A stretch of 33,754 nt of DNA from Owenweeksia sp. GTDB lineage: Bacteria; Bacteroidota; Bacteroidia; Flavobacteriales; Schleiferiaceae. Each line of letters starts with the position of its first letter. The stretch's first letter is position 1. The stretch spans positions 1-33,754 of the forward strand of contig JANQHO010000041.1 in assembly GCA_028277105.1 (NCBI GenBank). The letters run 5' to 3'. The notes beneath the pieces are model-generated. The model worked only from the letters and a program-made list of their open reading frames with translations. It did not search any database and was not told where the DNA came from. Below are positions 12,687 to 22,095 of this stretch, piece after piece. Made by a program: the position numbers and the translations under genes.

Positions 12687-13817
12687 CTATAACCTTTTTT
12701 GCAGTTTTTCAACCATACTGTTTTTCCAGGAGGCAAAAGTGCCTTCTTTGATCTTTTCATGGGCTTCAGTTACCAGCCAAAGGTAAAACGACAAATTGTG
12801 AACCGAGGCAATTTGCCGGGCCAGGTATTCATTGGCCACAAACAAATGGCGCAGATACGCTTTGGAATATTGCTCGTCTACAAAGGACGTGCCGTTAGAG
12901 TCGAGAGGCGAAAAATCGTCTTCCCACTTTTTGTTTTTGATATTGATAATGCCCTCTGAGGTAAAGATCATGCCGTTGCGCCCGTTACGGGTGGGCATTA
13001 CACAATCAAACATATCTACACCCAAAGCGATGTTTTCCAGTATGTTGGCCGGAGTGCCCACCCCCATTAAATAACGGGGCCGGTCTTTTGGCAGGTAGGA
13101 GCAAACCAATTCGCTCATGGCGTACATATCCTCGTGAGGCTCCCCTACAGAAAGGCCGCCAATGGCATAACCATCACAGGGAAATGAGGCGATGGTCTCG
13201 GCCGATCGCTGGCGCAAATCTTCAAAAACAGAACCCTGTACAATGGGAAATAAACTTTGAGTATAGCCGTAATAAGGTTCGTTCTGCTCCACCCAATCCA
13301 CACAACGCTTTAACCAGCGGTGGGTGAGTTCCATGGAATTCAAGGTATATTCATAGCTGCTGGGGTAGGGCGGACATTCGTCAAAAGCCATAATGATATC
13401 TCCCCCGATATGGTATTGGATCTCCATGGATTTTTCCGGGCTGAAAAAGTGAGTGGAGCCATCAATGTGGGATTTAAAAGCTACCCCTTCTTCGGTGATC
13501 TTGCGGTTTTCGGCCAGGCTGTACACCTGGTAGCCGCCACTGTCGGTGAGGATAGGGCCTTCCCAACCCATAAAGCGGTGCAGTCTGCCTGCCTGTTTCA
13601 AAATGGCAGTACCGGGCCTTAAATAAAGGTGGTAGGTATTGCCCAAAATGATCTGTGCCTTAATATCGTCTTTCAACTCCCTTTGGTGCACCGCCTTTAC
13701 GGAAGCCACTGTACCAACAGGCATAAAAATAGGAGTGTTGATGGTTCCGTGAGGGGTCTCCAGGATTCCGGCCCGGGCTTTACTTCCGGGGTCTTGGGCC
13801 AGCAGCGTAAACTTCAT
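12687..13817 (-). CDS. tgt: Queuine/preQ1 tRNA-ribosyltransferase
   Basis: 376 residues, full family length. Motifs include TDSGGYQVYS with Asp92, MAFDECPPYP, IGGLSVGEP and VDMFDCVMPTRNGRNG with the nucleophile-type Asp271. It exchanges guanine-34 for preQ1 in GUN-anticodon tRNAs. Unusual point: the zinc-site cysteines (CxCxxC in the E. coli and Zymomonas enzymes) are replaced in PLDSNGTSFVDEQYSKAYLRHL (Gly309, Ser311, Asp314), while the fourth ligand position His340 in SVHNL remains. First gene of a minus-strand operon with LptF/G, glycosyltransferase and EamA genes. The ATG lies only five bases after a -7 box. Confidence 0.96.
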   Translation of the reverse strand: MKFTLLAQDPGSKARAGILETPHGTINTPIFMPVGTVASVKAVHQRELKDDIKAQIILGNTYHLYLRPGTAILKQAGRLHRFMGWEGPILTDSGGYQVYSLAENRKITEEGVAFKSHIDGSTHFFSPEKSMEIQYHIGGDIIMAFDECPPYPSSYEYTLNSMELTHRWLKRCVDWVEQNEPYYGYTQSLFPIVQGSVFEDLRQRSAETIASFPCDGYAIGGLSVGEPHEDMYAMSELVCSYLPKDRPRYLMGVGTPANILENIALGVDMFDCVMPTRNGRNGMIFTSEGIINIKNKKWEDDFSPLDSNGTSFVDEQYSKAYLRHLFVANEYLARQIASVHNLSFYLWLVTEAHEKIKEGTFASWKNSMVEKLQKRL

Positions 13818-13839
13818 GGCGGCAAAAATAAGTTATTAG
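13805..13839. repeat. Imperfect direct repeat, copy 1 (tgt start and promoter)
   Basis: Thirty-five bases spanning the first codons of tgt and its promoter match 20089-20124 at 31 positions plus one inserted A. All four mismatches are transitions. Shared parts are 'gcgtaaa', 'tggc', 'gcaaaaa' and 'taagttattag'. The two copies bracket the whole accessory block of exported proteins. Confidence 0.75.
13823..13830 (-). promoter_or_regulatory. -7 promoter box of tgt operon
   Basis: Minus-strand TATTTTTG fits the Bacteroidota -7 consensus TAnnTTTG and is followed by CCGCC and then the tgt ATG. With transcription starting a few bases after the box, the message would have almost no 5' leader. No convincing TTTG is seen at -33. 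A near-identical copy of this box and start lies at 20089-20124. Confidence 0.6.
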
Positions 13840-13927
13840 AGCGGGCTGCTGATACCCGAGCCATAATACAGGTAAGGTTTACGTAAAAATCATTATACAA
13901 TTCTGATAAAAAAATATAATATTTTTT

Positions 13928-13966: not shown

Positions 13967-15487
13967 ATGAAAAACCTACTTTTTTTCTTTTGTCTTTTTT
14001 TAATCACAAATATTTACCTGAAAGCCCAGATCCAATTGCCCAATACACAGGGTGCTTCCGGTACGGAAACTACGGTATTGGGCAATGGTGTTTCCACCTC
14101 TTTACAAAATTCAAAAGTATTGGTAAATACTCGAAATAGTGGCTATTCCAATACAACGGCTTTGGAATTGCACTCTAGCGTCAATAGTTCTCTTTACCCA
14201 ACCCCAACCACTTACCCCGTTTTTAATATAAAGCAATACAATCACCATGTTCCAGGTGGCCAGGACCCCTGGTATGATGCCTTTAGCATTTGGCCTGGCG
14301 GGCAAACTTTTGTAGGGACTACCCAAGGAAGCTCCAAACTTAATATTGGTGGAGGCATTGAAGGCTTTAGCACCTTTATTGATTACAGTATTGATGTAAG
14401 CACCAGAAGTTTTTCCTGGAAAGCCAATACCGCCTTCCCCAACTCACAGAGCTTTATTTTTAAATACGCGGGCGATGGCACTTTCAACGCCCGCAACATT
14501 ATCAGCTTGCACCGCGATGGTAAAGTAGTTTTTGGCAATAATATTGCAACTCCCGAAGCTTTTGTACAAGTAGACCACGATGGTAATAGTGCTTCCAATT
14601 CTACCTTAAAAATAAATTCGGGCGCGGGTACTATTTTTAACCTAAGTGATAAAGGAAATTTAACCTTAAAGCGCTTTGGCGTACCTAATAATGTTGGGTA
14701 TGAAACTTATGGGCTTACCATTGAAAATGACGGTTGGTTGCCTCAAGACTTTGCCTTAGAAATAAAAACGGCTCAAGGCCGCGTATTTACAGTAGGCAAT
14801 AAAGGGCACGTACATATCGGTCCCGGTTTAAATTATAATATTCCAGGAGGCGATGACTTTTTTCTCTACGTGGCCAAAGGCATCCGCACCGAGAGGGTAA
14901 AAGTAGATGTAGCGGCTGACAATGGTTGGGCCGATTACGTGTTTGAGGAAGGCTACGAATTGAAAAGCCTGGAAGAAACCGAAGCTTACATTGAAGCAAA
15001 TGGGCATTTGCCCGGGGTACCTTCGGCCGAAGAAGTGAGCCGGAACGGGCTGGACCTGGGGGAGATGAACAAGACACTGCTGGAAAAAATAGAGGAACTG
15101 ACCTTACAGTTGATCGAGGTGAATAAGGAGTTGAAAAGGCTGCAGGATCATGAGAAATTAATTGGAACATGGGTTTTCAAAAAGGAAAAAGAAGGAAACG
15201 CTATAAGAGAGTATCCGAATTCAGAAAAAGAAAAAATTACCTTTAATAGTGATCATACTTTTATTAGAAAAATTCCCTCCAACAACATCATTAAAGGTAA
15301 TTGGGTACTGGAGGATAATGAAATAAAGCTCTATGTTACTTCCTTCAACGGAGAAACCCGTAATCCACGTGGCGAACCTTCTCATACTTTTAAATTAATT
15401 TCTGTTACTGACAAAGAGTTAGTGCTACGGGATAGGGGACGGCATGGTTTTATTACTATTACCTATCTAAAAGAAAGTATGAGATGA
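13967..15487 (+). CDS. Exported fibre-like protein fused to a lipocalin-like domain
   Basis: 506 residues. A signal peptide (MKNLLFFFCLFLITNIYLKA) precedes a long beta-rich region with Asn/Gly turns. Residues ~305-390 (GIRTERVKVDVAADNGWADYVFEE, then YELKSLEETEAYIEANGHLPGVPS, then a leucine-zipper-like helix) match the tail that ends many secreted Bacteroidota fibre-like proteins. Those normally stop after the coiled coil. Here the chain continues from about residue 392 (KLIGTWVFKKEKEGN ... GNWVLEDNEIKLYV ... HGFITITYLKES), which reads as a lipocalin-like calycin barrel. Base composition drops in GC at the same point (~15150). The stop overlaps the metalloprotease start as ATGA. Function unknown; surface adhesion or ligand binding is inference. 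Confidence 0.75.
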   Translation: MKNLLFFFCLFLITNIYLKAQIQLPNTQGASGTETTVLGNGVSTSLQNSKVLVNTRNSGYSNTTALELHSSVNSSLYPTPTTYPVFNIKQYNHHVPGGQDPWYDAFSIWPGGQTFVGTTQGSSKLNIGGGIEGFSTFIDYSIDVSTRSFSWKANTAFPNSQSFIFKYAGDGTFNARNIISLHRDGKVVFGNNIATPEAFVQVDHDGNSASNSTLKINSGAGTIFNLSDKGNLTLKRFGVPNNVGYETYGLTIENDGWLPQDFALEIKTAQGRVFTVGNKGHVHIGPGLNYNIPGGDDFFLYVAKGIRTERVKVDVAADNGWADYVFEEGYELKSLEETEAYIEANGHLPGVPSAEEVSRNGLDLGEMNKTLLEKIEELTLQLIEVNKELKRLQDHEKLIGTWVFKKEKEGNAIREYPNSEKEKITFNSDHTFIRKIPSNNIIKGNWVLEDNEIKLYVTSFNGETRNPRGEPSHTFKLISVTDKELVLRDRGRHGFITITYLKESMR

Positions 15488-17514
15488 GAATAATAGTAAT
15501 TGTCATATTGTCCCTATTGTCATCACTATTTACCTTTCTATTCTCACAAGATGGGAGATGTTCTATTAATGAAGTGGAACAGTTTATTAGAGATGTATAC
15601 CCTGAATATGAAATTACTAATCAGGAGTACAGCGAACGTATGTTTCAATATTTATCGGAGAGTCAAAGAAACAAAAAGCAAAATGAGCCGGGTTCCTCTG
15701 TAGCCAGGATACCGGTAGTGGTGCACCTTATAAGCGATGAAGTGATCGATCATTGCCAGTCCCTCAGTTTTCAAAACGTTTTTGATCAGATAAGGGTACT
15801 GAACGAGGATTTTCGTAGAAAGGCCAACACCAACGGCTATGGCAGCGGGGTGGATACAGAGATTGAGTTTTGTTTAGCTGCCAAAAAACCAAATGGGGAT
15901 TCCTTTCCCGGCTGGACGTTGAATCCCGATCCTGACGGTTCTCCTTATCCGGTTTGGAATTCTTCAATAGACCAACAACTTAAATCTGTCATACACTGGA
16001 ACCCTGATAGGTACCTCAACTTGTACGTAGTTAAAATGGGCATGGGCAATTTAGGATATGCTTATAAGCCTTCCATTATGGTGGATCATCCCGAATTAGA
16101 TGGCGTAGTTATCAATCATATAAATTTCGGGGATCTAAGTGACCCAGAGTATGGTTTAGGCCGTACTACTACCCATGAAGTGGGGCATTGGTTTGGGTTG
16201 TGCCATACCTTTGGCTGTAATGCTAGAGATTACAGTTGCTCGGATGATGATGGGATTTATGACACACCTGTATGTCAAGGTTCAAGATCAAGTGGAACAT
16301 ATCCAAATTGTAATAAAGATATACAATGCCAAACTGAGAATGATCTGAACGGTACCACCAGCGCCCGGCAGATTGAGAATTACATGGATTACAGCCATGA
16401 TTATTGTATGAATATGTTTACCCAGGGGCAAAAAGACCTGATGTGGCAAAACATAAATTTCGGACAAAGAGGTGTTATCGTTTTTGCTCCTTCAGTAGCC
16501 AGTTGCCCTACCCCGGAGCATTGTAATAACGGGGTGAGAGATTATGATGAACTGGATGTGGATTGTGGTAGTAGTTGCCCTCCCTGCTTACCAGGTTACG
16601 GCCCTGCAGAAGGAACGTATTGCTTAAATCCCGAAACCTCGGATAAAATGCATAATATCACCTTGAAGATTAACGGTCAAACAAATGATATAAATTATGT
16701 GTGTGAAGGATCAAGGATAAGATTAGGCTTTTCCAAATGCCCGGTAAACGGAGACGGCAATTACAAATGGTTAGGCTTAAGCGAAATGGATATTGATGGT
16801 AACATCTTAAAGGATGATTTCATGACTTACACTAATGATACTAGGGATGATTATCATTATGCAATAGGTAATTTATACAATTTAGCCAGTTCGCTTAACT
16901 TTGATTTAAGACCTGGTTATGTATATAAAATAAAAGATGCCAGAGTTTATAATGGCAATTGGTCTGAGGCTAATACTTATTTTTTGATTTATCCTAATGA
17001 GCTGAATTTTAATTGGTGGACTGATACTAGTAGGTTTCATGCAGCCAGGGGAATATATTTGAAAGACGGTGCTATGATCGAGAGTGAAGAAATGGTTTAT
17101 GAGGCACAGGATTTTATAGAGATGCAACCGGGTAGTGAATTAAGACCAGGTGAAAGCTTTGATTTAAAAATTGACAGAGAAGCTGCCTGTTCTATTTATT
17201 CGTCCAAAACTAGTGATGAATTAAGCTATCATGTGCCCACAAATGGCTATGAAGATATTGTTATGGAAGAACAAGCTTTTGAGCCTGATTCTAAAGTAGA
17301 AGTTTATCCTACCATTGCCGATAATAGACTGGTTTATGTTTCGTTACCTGATCGCCTGGTTACTAGCAAGTATTCCATCTTTAATAGTATAGGCTCCATT
17401 TTAAAAGAAGGCTTTTTTAGTTCAAATTTTAATGTAGTCAATCTTGACTATTATGAAGCTGGCACTTATCTAATTCTAATTGATCATAAACCTTATAAAA
17501 TAATAGTTCCTTAA
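15484..17514 (+). CDS. M43-family metalloprotease (cytophagalysin type) with T9SS sorting domain
   Basis: 676 residues. Signal peptide ~1-21 (ending LFSQ) and a short propeptide-like region. The M43 catalytic domain runs ~75-330, with zinc motif HEVGHWFGLCH at residues 231-241 and Met-turn ENYMDYSHDYCMNMFT further on. A cysteine-rich linker CNNGVRDYDELDVDCGSSC follows. The middle region (~385-570) is beta-rich with no recognised family, and a T9SS type A tail runs from ~605 (VEVYPTIADNRLVYVSLP ... AGTYLILIDHKPYKIIVP). Family members are secreted calcium/zinc metzincins that cut proteins. It overlaps the previous gene by ATGA and abuts the next, so it is the centre of the operon. Confidence 0.92.
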   Translation: MRIIVIVILSLLSSLFTFLFSQDGRCSINEVEQFIRDVYPEYEITNQEYSERMFQYLSESQRNKKQNEPGSSVARIPVVVHLISDEVIDHCQSLSFQNVFDQIRVLNEDFRRKANTNGYGSGVDTEIEFCLAAKKPNGDSFPGWTLNPDPDGSPYPVWNSSIDQQLKSVIHWNPDRYLNLYVVKMGMGNLGYAYKPSIMVDHPELDGVVINHINFGDLSDPEYGLGRTTTHEVGHWFGLCHTFGCNARDYSCSDDDGIYDTPVCQGSRSSGTYPNCNKDIQCQTENDLNGTTSARQIENYMDYSHDYCMNMFTQGQKDLMWQNINFGQRGVIVFAPSVASCPTPEHCNNGVRDYDELDVDCGSSCPPCLPGYGPAEGTYCLNPETSDKMHNITLKINGQTNDINYVCEGSRIRLGFSKCPVNGDGNYKWLGLSEMDIDGNILKDDFMTYTNDTRDDYHYAIGNLYNLASSLNFDLRPGYVYKIKDARVYNGNWSEANTYFLIYPNELNFNWWTDTSRFHAARGIYLKDGAMIESEEMVYEAQDFIEMQPGSELRPGESFDLKIDREAACSIYSSKTSDELSYHVPTNGYEDIVMEEQAFEPDSKVEVYPTIADNRLVYVSLPDRLVTSKYSIFNSIGSILKEGFFSSNFNVVNLDYYEAGTYLILIDHKPYKIIVP

Positions 17515-18150
17515 ATGAGGCTCCTTTGGATTACCAATACTATTTTAATCAGTGTTTCGCTCTCGGCTCAAAAGGTAAGAAACAACGGTATTTGTATCTC
17601 TGGAGGAGTAAATATGTATGGACAGAATTATTTTACAGATCATGATATAAGATTACTAGAAAAAAGCAGTGATGAATCTTATTTTTTTGACTTAAATGCT
17701 CAGTATAGTTACGGCTTTACCAGGTCTTTTTTGTTAGGCATTAGCTTATCCTATGAATATAAACCTTTGGAATACAAATTCAACTTTCCTCCCAGGGATG
17801 ACGCGTTTTCCCCTGTAGATCCAGTTTTTGACCCACACTTTATTTCTTTTGGTTTGTTTAGTGAGCACCGTTTAATCCAAACGAAGTCTTACTTCTTCGG
17901 CCTCCAACCTTTATTACAATATCACTTAACTAGCTATGAAGTATTTCTAAACCACTATTATTTTTCAATAAGCCTGGGTTTACCCAATGAGTTCTTTATT
18001 CACAAAGACTTTCGCAAAGCTTTTTCTATAGTCATTAACCCTTCTTTTTCTACTTACTCTACTCCCGCTATCTCCAGGGAGTTGGGAGAGCACTTTCAAG
18101 GCTTTTATTATTCTTTTAATATTAATATTGGTGGAAGGGTATATTTTTAA
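17515..18150 (+). CDS. Small outer-membrane beta-barrel protein
   Basis: 211 residues. Signal peptide MRLLWITNTILISVSLSA, then about eight predicted beta-strands (YSYGFTRSFLLGISLSYEYKP, FISFGLFSEHRL, YFFGLQPLLQYHL, YYFSISLGLP), ending NINIGGRVYF with a terminal Phe typical of barrel insertion signals. The ATG follows the metalloprotease stop with no gap, so it is very likely translated from the same message. The family is not identified precisely. Three further barrel-like genes of similar size lie downstream, which suggests a local paralogous set. Confidence 0.75.
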   Translation: MRLLWITNTILISVSLSAQKVRNNGICISGGVNMYGQNYFTDHDIRLLEKSSDESYFFDLNAQYSYGFTRSFLLGISLSYEYKPLEYKFNFPPRDDAFSPVDPVFDPHFISFGLFSEHRLIQTKSYFFGLQPLLQYHLTSYEVFLNHYYFSISLGLPNEFFIHKDFRKAFSIVINPSFSTYSTPAISRELGEHFQGFYYSFNINIGGRVYF

Positions 18151-18574
18151 GGCATTTTTGTTCTATCTATTTTTAGGTTTGCTCCCAAAGGTTGTTTGCT
18201 CACAAGAAGTTCAATGTGATTCTTTAGATATTAAATGCACCCAATTGAGGCATGGAGAATATGTTATCACTAATAAAACCGACTATTTAGCACTATTGGA
18301 AGGGCGCTCCCCTCACCCCAACTGTCAGGCATATCAATTGCCCGAGATAGATTTTTCCCGATATACTCTAGTCGGCTTAAAAACATCGGTAAGAGGCTGT
18401 GATTTCCCTGTGGTAACCTATGACTGTTCTAGAGAAAATGATGATTATGTAGTTTCCATATTGATTGAGCGAAAGGGACTTTGCAAAAGGAACAATACTA
18501 TAAATCTATGGCTTAAACTCTCAAAAGTAGTTGATCCTTCCAGGGTAAAACTAGAGGTAACCCGTAAAGGCTAA
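18131..18574 (+). CDS. Small exported six-cysteine protein, unknown function
   Basis: About 147 residues from GTG at 18131. There is no ATG, and TTG at 18128 or 18158 are alternatives. All give a signal peptide of the form KAFLFYLFLGLLPKVVCSQ. The mature part has six cysteines (in VQC, IKC, PNC, RGC, YDC, GLC), an even number compatible with three disulfides. A segment LPEIDFSRYTLVGLKTSV followed by strands ending WLKLSKV suggests a small beta domain. The outline recalls PrcB-like domains, but this is weak. It overlaps the barrel gene by 20 bases. A regulatory or protective partner of the metalloprotease is speculation from context. Confidence 0.6.
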   Translation: MEGYIFKAFLFYLFLGLLPKVVCSQEVQCDSLDIKCTQLRHGEYVITNKTDYLALLEGRSPHPNCQAYQLPEIDFSRYTLVGLKTSVRGCDFPVVTYDCSRENDDYVVSILIERKGLCKRNNTINLWLKLSKVVDPSRVKLEVTRKG

Positions 18575-19246
18575 GAGTGTGAAAAAAAAATAATCATTAT
18601 AATTTCTGTACTTTTCAGCCACAATGCAACCAGTCAGCACTTCTTAAAGATCAATGCTACTTACAACCTCAATTCGTTGGAACTATTTGAAGATCCTCAA
18701 GTGCTCGAATATGTAAAGGAATGGAATAGTGACTATATCAGTTCTACCGGAGTCAATTTCAACCTGGCCTATAAATATTTGTTTAGGAGAAATCTTGGTT
18801 TTACCGTGGGTTTATCCTACGGCTTTAATCAGGTTTCCTATACCAATTTTTCAGATGAAAGTACCTTAACGGCAACTGAATCTTTTCCTTTAGTGTCGGC
18901 TAACCTTGCCTTTTTATACGAACACCGCCCTCAATACGATGCTGTTTTTTCTACCTCCTTAGGCTTGGCGGTTTACAACTGCATAAGGGATTTTAGGACA
19001 GAAGTAAAATCAGATGGCAGATCGATAAGCGAATTCAACTATCCTTTTTTAGGATATTGTAAAGACTTTTTGGTCCTGTAATGGTCATTTGATTATTATC
19101 TATTTCATTGGTCAATAAATAAAAAGAAAAAAAGCGAGATAAGAATACCTCTTATACTGGCCACTCAATTATTAATGGATATGGCACAGTCTGATGATAT
19201 CTTCTACTCCATCGGCTTGGGTAGTGGAATAGAGCTTAGATTTTAA
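18575..19246 (+). pseudogene. Broken outer-membrane beta-barrel gene
   Basis: One frame stays homologous-looking from 18575 to 19246 (about 223 codons). It reads as a signal peptide (KKIIIIISVLFSHNATSQ), barrel strands (GVNFNLAYKYLFRRNLGFTVGLSYGF, SANLAFLYEHRP, STSLGLAVYN) and, after a TAA at 19079-19081, WSFDYYLFHWS ... SEIRIPLIL and a proper barrel end YSIGLGSGIELRF. The lesions are that in-frame stop and the lack of a start codon. GTG at 18579 is out of frame by one base at a run of nine A's; one more A would restore it. A short stretch after it (19248-19337, ending DTFSTVNFGIK) may be a scrap of another barrel. Confidence 0.68.
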
Positions 19247-19356
19247 TGAAGCAGTTGAATACTGTTTGGAAACTTTCGATATAAGGGCATTTATTTTAGA
19301 AGATACCTTTAGTACCGTCAATTTTGGAATAAAATAATAGCAAGAAAACGTTTTAA

Positions 19357-20030
19357 ATGAAAAGATCAATAATTTTATCCTTGCTTTAACCCTGCAAATA
19401 GCCGATGCGCAAACTGTGCTGTCTATCCGCGCTGGAGCGGGCCTAAAAAGCAGGGATTTTGGTTTTGCCAATGAATTCGCCTACAATTTTTACGAGGAAA
19501 ATGTAAAGACCAATCTTTCTTTTCAGTATGGTTTGGATTATCAGCAAGGGCTGAGTACGAGATCATCCCTTTGGGCAGCCGCCAATTTCGCAGTGAGGGA
19601 TATTTATTATGAAGATATTATTCTGATGGATGTATCGGGACAAATCGCTGGTAGTTATGAAAAGGACATCCTGAGATTTATAGATGTATCCCTGGGTTAC
19701 AGCTACAAAATAATTGATAAGGATTTCGATCTGTACCTGAGAGCAGGAGGTTTTATCGCCTTTCCGGTCGATTTCCGGGCACAATACGATTTTACAGATA
19801 ACAGTATTCAGCAGAATACCTTTAAACCGGTTCTTCCCGAAGAAAACAACTACGGGGTAATAGTAGAGCCTCTCATTTCATGGAAACCCTGGCTCAAAAG
19901 AAATACAGGTTTTTCATTGGGTATTCCCGTTCAATTGTTTTGGGTAGAAAACCCCAATTCCGGTGTAGCTGATCTCAACCCGCGTTATACAGTTTCATTA
20001 CTGATAGGAGTAAGTACCTTTTTACAATAA
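19357..20030 (+). CDS. Outer-membrane beta-barrel protein with frameshifted signal peptide (possible pseudogene)
   Basis: The body from GTG 19416 gives 204 residues of barrel-like strands (AGAGLKSRDFGFANEFAYNFY, NLSFQYGLDYQQGL, SLWAAANFAVRDIYY, VSLGYSYKI) ending RYTVSLLIGVSTFLQ. A barrel needs a signal peptide, and GTG 19416 gives none. Just upstream, ATG 19357 reads MKRSIILSLL then stop, while the body's own frame reads ILALTLQIADAQTV. Restoring one G at 19383/19384 would join them into MKRSIILSL-ALTLQIADAQ, a complete signal peptide. So either the gene is freshly inactivated or a base is missing from the sequence. It is related in size and layout to its neighbours. Confidence 0.6.
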
Positions 20031-20088: not shown

Positions 20089-20124
20089 GCGTAAATCTCG
20101 TGGCAGCAAAAAATAAGTTATTAG
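20089..20124. repeat. Imperfect direct repeat, copy 2 (vestigial tgt start and promoter)
   Basis: Near copy of 13805-13839. Read on the minus strand it holds the tgt promoter motif with an extra T and then ACG AGA TTT ACG where tgt has ATG AAG TTT ACG, so the start codon is lost. Beyond four codons there is no resemblance to Tgt. It marks the far side of the accessory block, just before the last barrel gene. Confidence 0.72.
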
Positions 20125-20209
20125 TATGGGCCGTTAATACCAAACTAGTCGGTCAGGATAAAGCAAAAGTATTTCATTTTCCATTTTTAAATAAAAACAT
20201 AATTTTCAG

Positions 20210-20929
20210 ATGAATTTATTGAAGTATCTTTTTTCTATCAGCCTTATAAGTTTATTCCTTTCTGAAGCTGTAGCCCAGGAAAAAATATTAGAGCTAGGCT
20301 TTGGGTTATATGATCATTCCCGGGATTTTGTACACACTTCTGAAAGTAACGCGGAATTTTATAATTCCTACGCGAAAAAGAGAGATATTATCAAAGAATT
20401 GTCCTTGAAGTACTCTTTTATAAATGAGCAGGGATTATTGCTAGGTCTGTCACTGTCATATCTTACTACGGAAATTGAATTTTCAGAAAACTCACTGGAC
20501 AATCCAATCCATCCCTATTACGGGTTTGTAGTTTCTGACCTGGAAACGATTAAAAGAAACTACGTGTTTGTTACACCCGCTATAGGTTTTTCAAAAAGGG
20601 TAGAAATTTTTAACGTAAGCGGGTTCAGGTTGAATCTCCCATTAGGGTTGCGGTTAGGCTTGCCCGTAAATTGTTATGATGAGCTCTTGCCCAGAGGGAG
20701 GGAAAGTGTTACTAAAATTGAAAGATACAGAGGAGAAAATTTTTCAAAGGGTTTGCTCTACGGGCTTTCGGTTAGTCCGTCTTTAGCTTTTTACCCTTGG
20801 GAAAAAAAGTGGATGAAACAGCTAAGTTTAAACCTTGGATTGGAGGCCAACCTGCTTTTTCAGCATGAAGCGGAGTTAAATCCAAAATATCTTTTAGGTT
20901 TCAATGCGGGAGTCGGGTATGATTTTTAA
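20210..20929 (+). CDS. Outer-membrane beta-barrel protein
   Basis: 239 residues. Signal peptide MNLLKYLFSISLISLFLSEAVAQ, then amphipathic strands (LELGFGLYDHSRDFVH, KELSLKYSFINEQGLLLGLSLSYLTTEIEF, YVFVTPAIGFSKRVEIF, LPLGLRLGLPV, LYGLSVSPSLAFYPW, LSLNLGLEANLLF), ending LGFNAGVGYDF with terminal Phe. It is intact, unlike the two barrels before it, and lies beyond the distal direct repeat with a 179-base gap upstream, so it may have its own promoter. The precise family and ligand are not recognised. Confidence 0.75.
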   Translation: MNLLKYLFSISLISLFLSEAVAQEKILELGFGLYDHSRDFVHTSESNAEFYNSYAKKRDIIKELSLKYSFINEQGLLLGLSLSYLTTEIEFSENSLDNPIHPYYGFVVSDLETIKRNYVFVTPAIGFSKRVEIFNVSGFRLNLPLGLRLGLPVNCYDELLPRGRESVTKIERYRGENFSKGLLYGLSVSPSLAFYPWEKKWMKQLSLNLGLEANLLFQHEAELNPKYLLGFNAGVGYDF

Positions 20930-21006: not shown

Positions 21007-22095
21007 ATGGAGGTTTTAATACTAATATGGCAACTGGCCACGGCTTTTCTCCTGCTGTATTACCTGATCTTTTACGGCCGATTTTTACTGTATAAATCAC
21101 CTGGAGACGAGGAGGAGGTTTTTTCGGAATCTATTTCCGTGATCATTTGTGCCCGCAACGAAGCTGGAAATCTCCGGGAAAACCTCCCGCTGGTACTGCA
21201 GCAAGAGCACCCACATTTTGAAGTATTGGTAGTAAACGATCGCAGCAAAGATGAAAGCAGCAGTATTTTAAGGCAGTTAAGAAAGGAACATCCTAACCTT
21301 AGAATATTGGAAATTGAAGATGGTGATAACTACCAGGGCAAAAAGAAAGCCCTGGCCCGGGGGATCGAAGCGGCTAAGTACGACTATGTGGTATTGACCG
21401 ATGCCGATTGCCAACCCGCCAGTGAACAGTGGCTCAGCCTGATGGCTTCCCATTTTAAAAGCAAAGAGATAGTATTGGGCTTTGGATCTTATGAAAAACA
21501 GAAAGGCTGGGTCAATAAGCTGGTGCAATGGGAAACCCTGCACTCAGCTGTGCAGTATTTTTCCATGGCCTACAGTGGCTTGCCCTATATGGGGGTGGGG
21601 CGTAACCTGGCCTACAAAAAGTCTTTATTTACGAAATCTAAAGGTTTTGAAGAGCACCTTGACCTGCCTTCAGGAGATGACGATCTTTTTATCAGTTCGG
21701 TAGCCCGGGTCGATAATGTGGCGCTGGAATACCGGAAAGAAGCTTTTACTTATTCTGAAGCTCCCCTTACATTAAGACAATGGTGGAGACAAAAAAGAAG
21801 GCATCTTTCTACCGCTAATCGCTACAGGTTTTTACCTAAAACCGCACTGGCTTTATACGGCACTAGCCAGTTGTTGTTTTATTTATTGCTTCCCTTGGCA
21901 TTAAAGGCAGGTTTATGGGCTTTGATCGGGGCCAGGTTTGTTTTACAGTATGTCTTTTTTTTGCTTTTTTCCCGCAGGTTCAAGACTGACGGCTTATGGC
22001 TGACCTACTCGTTATGGGAATTTTTACAGATCATTTTTACTGCTCTTATTCATCTGCAAAATACTTTTACCGGTAAACCCCGAACATGGAAATAA
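21007..22095 (+). CDS. Membrane-anchored family 2 glycosyltransferase
   Basis: 362 residues. One N-terminal membrane helix (LILIWQLATAFLLLYYLIFYG) is followed by a GT-A catalytic domain: ISVIICARNEAGNL (~44-57), EVLVVNDRSKDES, then the DxD-type TDADCQP, an acidic GDDD, and RQWWRQKRRHLS, resembling the QxxRW acceptor motif of processive or lipid-linked GT2 enzymes. Two or three C-terminal membrane helices follow. It transfers a sugar from a nucleotide donor to an envelope or extracellular acceptor that cannot be named. Its last ten bases overlap rsmG. Confidence 0.9.
   Translation: MEVLILIWQLATAFLLLYYLIFYGRFLLYKSPGDEEEVFSESISVIICARNEAGNLRENLPLVLQQEHPHFEVLVVNDRSKDESSSILRQLRKEHPNLRILEIEDGDNYQGKKKALARGIEAAKYDYVVLTDADCQPASEQWLSLMASHFKSKEIVLGFGSYEKQKGWVNKLVQWETLHSAVQYFSMAYSGLPYMGVGRNLAYKKSLFTKSKGFEEHLDLPSGDDDLFISSVARVDNVALEYRKEAFTYSEAPLTLRQWWRQKRRHLSTANRYRFLPKTALALYGTSQLLFYLLLPLALKAGLWALIGARFVLQYVFFLLFSRRFKTDGLWLTYSLWEFLQIIFTALIHLQNTFTGKPRTWK

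What the first reader, a model, noticed from the sequence alone, without database searches (positions are those of the whole stretch)
13967..18574. Possible four-gene surface protease module: fibre/lipocalin protein, M43 protease, barrel and six-cysteine protein
The genes are joined by ATGA (15484-15487), zero spacing (17514/17515) and a 20-base overlap (18131-18150), so they look like one coupled unit. It would yield a T9SS-exported metzincin, an outer-membrane barrel and a small exported protein with six cysteines. Protease operons that also encode a barrel and a small disulfide protein suggest anchoring plus inhibition or folding, but no such set is known to me for M43 enzymes. The module is a testable candidate for a new system.
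Basis: partly seen in the sequence, partly recalled or inferred. Interest (0 to 1): 0.62.

Follow-up and report, generated by a model that had tools for sequence, protein, structure and literature searches.

The report
Fibre-led protease operon with PrcB-like partner
A Bacteroidota genome carries an inserted gene cluster that makes a fibre-like surface protein, an exported protease and a small cysteine-containing protein distantly related to PrcB, a known protease partner; similar clusters in other Bacteroidota keep the fibre and the small protein but change the type of protease, which suggests that the small protein is a general partner of exported proteases.

Summary
The four genes are real and tightly packed, but they are part of a larger island. 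In 19 relatives tgt and the glycosyltransferase gene lie 53-260 bp apart; here 7.2 kb separates them, with a degenerate second copy of the tgt 5' edge at the far end. A second genome (G027) has an equivalent island elsewhere: fibre, metalloprotease (M10, not M43), two Cys proteins, a free-standing lipocalin and orthologues of three barrel-like genes.

The recurring core is fibre + Cys protein + exported protease, not M43 + barrel. Of eleven fibre operons with a Cys protein, ten carry a secreted protease (seven trypsin-like S1, one S8, one M10, one M43), against 4 of 26 other fibre operons (Fisher p = 3e-5). The Cys protein is a remote relative of PrcB_C (PF14343), named after PrcB, which the spirochaete protease PrtP needs in order to accumulate. 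A stabilising or maturing partner is therefore more likely than an inhibitor, although T. forsythia potempins (inhibitors paired with T9SS proteases, mirolysin M43 included) are a close precedent. Barrel folds and T9SS export of this M43 remain unproven. Two distal barrel-like genes are broken. New variant of a known kind.

The parts
12687..13817 (-). tgt (queuine tRNA-ribosyltransferase), left flank of the island
   Evidence: ORF; 67-82% identical full-length tgt lies next to the glycosyltransferase gene in relatives
13805..13856 (.). tgt 5' edge plus leader, copy 1 (with a TATTTTTG -7-like box reading towards tgt)
   Evidence: 79% identical over 53 bp to copy 2, E 2e-7; only these two copies in the genome; -7-like box
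13967..15487 (+). exported tail-fibre-like protein (506 aa), leader gene of the operon
   Evidence: ORF; fibre C-terminal family, 9 copies in this genome; 45% identical over 261 aa to the G027 island fibre
15158..15427 (+). lipocalin-like domain fused to the fibre
   Evidence: PF13648 E 7.8e-5; 30% identical to the free-standing lipocalin-like gene of the G027 island
15484..17514 (+). M43 (pappalysin-type) metalloprotease, 676 aa, with signal peptide and Cys26 just behind it (candidate cysteine switch)
   Evidence: PF05572 E 1.6e-15; mirolysin E 6e-37; motif positions
16174..16206 (+). zinc-binding motif HEVGHWFGLCH
17515..18150 (+). 211-aa exported strand-rich protein, candidate outer-membrane barrel
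   Evidence: ORF; orthologue of the same length in the G027 island, 34-36% identity over the full length; fold not established
18131..18574 (+). exported cysteine-containing protein (148 aa from the TTG, 147 from the GTG), remote member of the PrcB_C superfamily
   Evidence: 44% and 40% identical to two copies in the G027 island; family HMM finds a PF14343 protein at E 1.6e-12; hhalign probability 92%, E 5.9e-7
18579..19081 (+). broken barrel-like gene (PorP/SprF-like N-terminal part, stops early)
   Evidence: PF11751 E 3.4e-5 for the N-terminal part; sequence
19358..20030 (+). barrel-like gene with a frameshift in its signal-peptide region
   Evidence: 32% identical over 205 aa to a barrel-like gene of the G027 island; sequence
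20089..20141 (.). degenerate copy 2 of the tgt 5' edge, marking the far end of the insertion
20210..20929 (+). intact 239-aa barrel-like gene
   Evidence: 30% identical over 188 aa to a barrel-like gene of the G027 island, E 8e-14
21007..22095 (+). glycosyltransferase, right flank; 53-260 bp from tgt in relatives without the island

Best explanation
An acquired surface-protein island whose core is a fibre-led operon carrying an exported protease and a dedicated PrcB-superfamily partner. Inferred working: the fibre protein is exported and forms a surface fibre; the protease crosses the outer membrane, probably by T9SS, as a zymogen held by a cysteine switch; the Cys protein binds the protease in the periplasm or at the outer membrane, and folds, stabilises or matures it, as PrcB does for PrtP in Treponema denticola; the strand-rich proteins are outer-membrane barrels that anchor or display the complex. 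Shown here: the genes, the island insertion, the recurrence of fibre + Cys protein + secreted protease with exchange of protease class, and the remote homology of the Cys protein to PrcB_C. Inferred: co-transcription, protein contact, direction of the effect (stabilising rather than inhibiting), and the role of the barrels.
For: Insertion: tgt-glycosyltransferase spacing 53-260 bp in 19 relatives against 7,189 bp here, with a 53-bp partial duplication of the tgt 5' edge. Second island in G027 with orthologous fibre, Cys x2, lipocalin and three barrel-like genes, but an M10 protease. Cys-protein fibre operons: secreted protease in 10 of 11 (M43 window; M10 L055; S1 L092, L097, L125, L126, L132, L136, L198; S8 L096; none in L095) against 4 of 26 other fibre operons in eight of these genomes; Fisher p 2.7e-5, 6.6e-5 without the window. 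PrcB homology. PrcB is required for, and interacts with, the protease PrtP; with a non-polar prcB deletion PrtP protein is not detected (PMC8167434). One partner family next to four catalytic classes fits a general stabiliser better than a class-specific active-site inhibitor.
Against: No transcript or contact data. The window's own Cys protein does not match PF14343 directly, and the profile of close relatives only gives 12% in hhalign. The AlphaFold2 model (pLDDT 77) has no convincing PDB match; best VIA-align Z 3.9 to NigD-like proteins. In T. forsythia the analogous small genes next to T9SS proteases are described as inhibitors. In L095 the Cys protein sits in a fibre operon without a protease. 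In L156 an unrelated lipoprotein sits between a fibre and a homologous S1 protease, so the partner slot is not exclusive. The operons are not fully independent, several coming from one genome or family.
Confidence: 0.45

Rival explanations
1. The Cys protein is a dedicated inhibitor (potempin-like) that keeps the exported protease inactive inside the cell or protects the cell surface, with the fibre and barrels as display parts.
For: In T. forsythia every T9SS KLIKK protease (M10, M43, S8 classes) is preceded by a small lipoprotein gene (PMC4404884), described as specific inhibitors, potempins, of the co-expressed protease (PMC7296668). The window M43 is closest to mirolysin among solved structures. 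Many Cys-family members end their signal peptide in a lipoprotein-like Cys, and the Cys gene usually lies between fibre and protease.
Against: The six potempin genes share no significant sequence similarity with one another, whereas here one family serves S1, S8, M10 and M43. The Cys family is related to PrcB_C, whose namesake is needed for its protease to accumulate. No match of the Cys protein or profile to any potempin among PDB chains, with the caveat that the presence of potempin chains there was not verified.
Confidence: 0.28
2. Loose assembly: fibre-led operons collect unrelated surface cargo, and protease, Cys protein and barrels have no shared function beyond joint expression at the surface.
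For: The genome has 9 fibre genes, most heading operons with varied cargo: RHS/YD giants, T9SS paralogues, lipoproteins. Most relatives of the Cys protein outside fibre operons stand alone, without protease. Two distal barrel-like genes are broken.
Against: Proteases are rare in other fibre operons (4 of 26) but nearly constant in those with the Cys protein (10 of 11), p 3e-5.
Confidence: 0.22
3. The four-gene M43-barrel-Cys unit is a specific new M43 system.
For: Overlapping genes in the window.
Against: The G027 island has the same partners with an M10 protease; M43 loci of relatives lack the partners; barrels vary in number and kind.
Confidence: 0.05

Closest known systems
Dentilisin complex of Treponema denticola (prcB-prcA-prtP)
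   Same: A small exported protein of the PrcB_C superfamily encoded in one operon with a surface protease.
   Different: Dentilisin is S8 in a spirochaete, PrcB is a lipoprotein and PrcA is present; here there is no PrcA, a fibre leads the operon, the protease is M43 (S1, S8 or M10 in other loci), the window partner has an SPase-I-like rather than a lipoprotein signal, and four core cysteines are conserved. Homology was shown to PF14343 proteins of Bacteroidota, over about 98 profile columns at 12% identity, not to PrcB itself.
KLIKK protease-potempin pairs of Tannerella forsythia (mirolysin-PotD, karilysin-PotA and others)
   Same: T9SS proteases of the M10, M43 and S8 classes, each paired with a small exported protein; mirolysin is the closest solved relative of the window M43, and both have a Cys just behind the signal peptide.
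   Different: Potempin genes precede the protease, are not similar to one another and are described as inhibitors; no fibre or barrel genes are reported in the papers read; no sequence or fold match of the Cys protein to a potempin was seen.
Fibre-led cargo operons of Bacteroidota (RHS/YD, T9SS paralogues) in the same genomes
   Same: Same fibre C-terminal family as first gene, with short gaps to exported cargo.
   Different: No PrcB-like gene and, as a rule, no protease.

Membership tests
Peptidase M43 (pappalysin/cytophagalysin type) | Catalytic domain with HExxHxxGxxH and Met-turn | tested here: met
   PF05572 E 1.6e-15, motif at residue 231, NYMDYS at 299; mirolysin E 6e-37
Peptidase M43 (pappalysin/cytophagalysin type) | Proteolytic activity | not testable with these tools
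   needs expression
T9SS cargo | C-terminal sorting domain (Por_Secre_tail or CHU_C) | tested here: inconclusive
   Window M43 not matched by Pfam; own tail HMM E 0.003 against 0.48 for the reversed protein. Proteases of the related operons mostly match
PrcB_C superfamily (PF14343) | Direct match to the Pfam model | tested here: not met
   Window protein: no match up to E 10 or E 1. It is therefore filed as a remote relative, not as a PF14343 member
PrcB_C superfamily (PF14343) | Homology through intermediates | tested here: met
   Family HMM finds L091, a PF14343 protein, at E 1.6e-12; 2 of 14 aligned proteins match PF14343, best 1.1e-13; hhalign 92%, E 5.9e-7
PrcB_C superfamily (PF14343) | Encoded in an operon with a surface protease and needed for its accumulation | tested here: inconclusive
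   Genomic linkage met; requirement not testable here
Potempins (T. forsythia inhibitors) | Small exported protein gene directly upstream of a T9SS protease | tested here: inconclusive
   Typical order in other loci is fibre-Cys-protease, but in the window and L055 the Cys gene lies downstream of the protease
Potempins (T. forsythia inhibitors) | Inhibition of the paired protease | not testable with these tools
   needs an assay
Potempins (T. forsythia inhibitors) | Sequence or fold similarity to a potempin | tested here: inconclusive
   No potempin recognised among PDB sequence matches or Foldseek/VIA rows; presence of potempin chains in the library not verified
Outer-membrane beta-barrels (211-aa protein) | Barrel fold | tested here: inconclusive
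   No Pfam match; AlphaFold2 pLDDT 41, about 11 strands
Lipocalin_4 (PF13648) | Pfam gathering score | tested here: met
   23.9 bits against a cut-off of 22.4 for the fibre C-terminus

The most novel reading that the evidence does not exclude
A PrcB-superfamily protein is a universal partner for exported Bacteroidota proteases: one scaffold that works with S1, S8, M10 and M43 enzymes, carried in a fibre-led cassette in which the protease is exchanged while the partner and fibre are kept. It would act through something the proteases share (sorting domain, secretion or surface anchoring) rather than through their active sites.
Probability: 0.3. Interest if true: 0.7.

Novelty: new variant of a known kind. 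Interest (0 to 1): 0.5.

Why it matters
It gives a testable genomic rule (fibre + PrcB-like protein predicts an exported protease of any class) and extends the PrcB type of protease partner, described for T. denticola as without homologues outside oral treponemes (PMC8167434), to Bacteroidota operons. If the partner acts independently of protease class, it points to a shared step in the maturation or surface display of exported proteases that is not yet described.

Tried and rejected
Direct Pfam, NCBIfam and PHROGs assignment of the Cys and 211-aa proteins: no useful match. Structure route for the Cys protein: model of moderate confidence, no PDB match by Foldseek (best E 0.23) and only Z 3.9 by VIA-align, so no fold claim is made; a family not listed there is not excluded. 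Structure of the 211-aa protein: too poor to search. Potempin homology through the PDB: no hits for the Cys protein, the 262-aa gene upstream of the M10 protease, the L156 lipoprotein or the lipocalin-like protein. Promoter and terminator scans: no more sites than in shuffles, so transcription units are not defined. A phage-derived reading was considered because of the fibre: only weak PHROG matches to parts of fibres and no phage genes were seen in the island. Free-standing lipocalin-like neighbours in other loci (L093, L096, L091) looked suggestive by eye, but the lipocalin HMM did not find them, so only the window and L055 are counted as sharing that domain. A further sample in the order of G364 added one more fibre-Cys-S1 operon (L198) and otherwise stand-alone members.
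Full report
OBSERVATION. The first gene is a tail-fibre-like exported protein with a C-terminal lipocalin-like domain (PF13648 at 23.9 bits). The second has an intact M43 catalytic domain; its closest solved relatives are mirolysin and ulilysin, and a cysteine (C26) follows the signal peptide, in the place where mirolysin has its cysteine switch (PMC8259862). The third is a 211-aa exported strand-rich protein without family match. The fourth has six cysteines after its signal peptide, of which four form the conserved core. Two claims are weaker than stated: the M43 protein has only a marginal T9SS tail, and the barrel fold could not be established.

THE UNIT IS PART OF AN ISLAND. Downstream lie a truncated barrel-like gene (18579-19081), a barrel-like gene with a frameshift in the signal-peptide region (19358-20030), and an intact 239-aa one (20210-20929). 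The flanking genes tgt and a glycosyltransferase are divergent neighbours 53-260 bp apart in 19 relatives of the same family but 7,189 bp apart here. The first bases of tgt plus its leader (13805-13856) recur in degenerate form at 20089-20141 (42 of 53 identical) and nowhere else in the genome. The simplest reading is insertion of about 6.3 kb upstream of tgt with partial duplication of the target; the mechanism is not known.

A SECOND ISLAND. Of 60 relatives only G027 has close relatives of the Cys protein (two copies, 44% and 40%) and of the 211-aa protein (34-36% over the full length), all within one locus, L055. L055 reads: fibre, 262-aa protein, M10 metalloprotease with T9SS sorting domains, barrel-like, Cys, free-standing lipocalin, Cys, then five barrel-like genes. 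Three window barrel-like genes (17515, 19358, 20210) have orthologues there; the protease does not, M43 being replaced by M10. L055 lies in another chromosomal setting (next to purC-like and dnaQ-like genes). The same region is held under the name of an uncultured Cryomorphaceae metagenome assembly, so the window probably comes from a related bacterium.

THE CONSERVED CORE. Profiles of the Cys protein were run over 88 genomes of the family, 395 of the class and 87 of a second order, and 33 neighbourhoods were examined. Eleven of the 33 loci lie in a fibre-led operon; the rest are stand-alone, mostly lipoprotein-like genes without a fibre seen. Of the eleven fibre operons, ten hold a secreted protease: M43 (window), M10 (L055), S8 twice in L096, and trypsin-like S1 in L092, L097, L125, L126, L132, L136 and L198. 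The S1 enzymes first compared are homologous to one another (26-49%); the weakest single Pfam call, L136, is 33% identical to L092 over 905 columns. L095 has no protease. A further locus, L135, starts at a contig end with two such small genes followed by a broken S1 gene and was not counted among the eleven.

CONTROL. Fibre genes of eight genomes with such operons were located and their operons read. Of 26 fibre operons without a Cys protein, four encode a protease (two tandem M43 units in L148, one S1 in L156, one M2 in L077). Ten of 11 against 4 of 26 gives p 2.7e-5, and 6.6e-5 without the window. The operons are not fully independent, so these values describe the strength of the pattern and are not exact probabilities. 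In the other direction, the M43 loci of relatives that were checked have no Cys, barrel or fibre neighbour within about 1.5 kb.

WHAT THE CYS PROTEIN IS. The window protein matches no Pfam model. A model of 31 family members finds L091, a PF14343 (PrcB_C) protein, at E 1.6e-12 among 252 proteins; the next two hits (1e-8, 1e-6) are small genes next to family members that look like second copies, and the remaining proteins lie above 1e-3. Two of 14 aligned proteins match PF14343 themselves. Profile-profile comparison gives 92% and E 5.9e-7 over 98 columns, through the shared IDF and 'PK' motifs; with only the three closest sequences it gives 12%. Remote homology is therefore well supported for the family and indirect for the window member. 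In T. denticola, PrcB interacts with PrtP, and PrtP protein is not detected when prcB is deleted (PMC8167434).

MECHANISM. Most likely: exported fibre, protease exported as zymogen, and a PrcB-like partner that stabilises or matures it, with barrel-like proteins as outer-membrane anchors. That one partner family accompanies four catalytic classes speaks for an action outside the active site. The main rival is inhibition: T. forsythia pairs each T9SS KLIKK protease with a small lipoprotein (PMC4404884) described as a specific inhibitor (PMC7296668), but those six genes are not similar to each other. Locus L156, in which an unrelated lipoprotein takes the slot between fibre and S1 protease, fits either.

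VERDICT. It is a new variant of known protease-partner operons. Function remains untested.

Noticed in passing
G000 contigs C47, C1, C45, C106, C8, C15, C35 (L072-L078): Nine fibre genes in one genome; most head operons with different surface cargo (RHS/YD giants, T9SS paralogues, lipoproteins). This looks like a general cargo-operon layout that I did not find described.
   Followed up: partly
L140:481-954 (IMG/VR 3300034152_000626): A phage contig with terminase and portal-like genes encodes a lipoprotein-like member of the Cys/PrcB-like family.
   Followed up: no
L055:7067-7855: The 262-aa protein upstream of the M10 protease has, by eye, an NTR/OB-like pattern; no Pfam or PDB match. If real it could be an inhibitor-like second partner.
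   Followed up: partly
L148:5913-12096: Two tandem copies of a fibre / 253-aa / M43 / T9SS-tail unit, a protease-bearing fibre operon without Cys protein.
   Followed up: partly
L156:8-4893: Fibre, unrelated 191-aa lipoprotein and an S1 protease homologous to those of the Cys operons: a different small protein in the partner slot.
   Followed up: partly
window 18579-20030: Two distal barrel-like genes are broken by a premature stop and a frameshift while the upstream genes are intact, as if the tail of the island is decaying.
   Followed up: partly
L122:7889-9606: In G222 a stand-alone PrcB-like lipoprotein gene also lies next to a tgt-like gene; probably coincidence.
   Followed up: no
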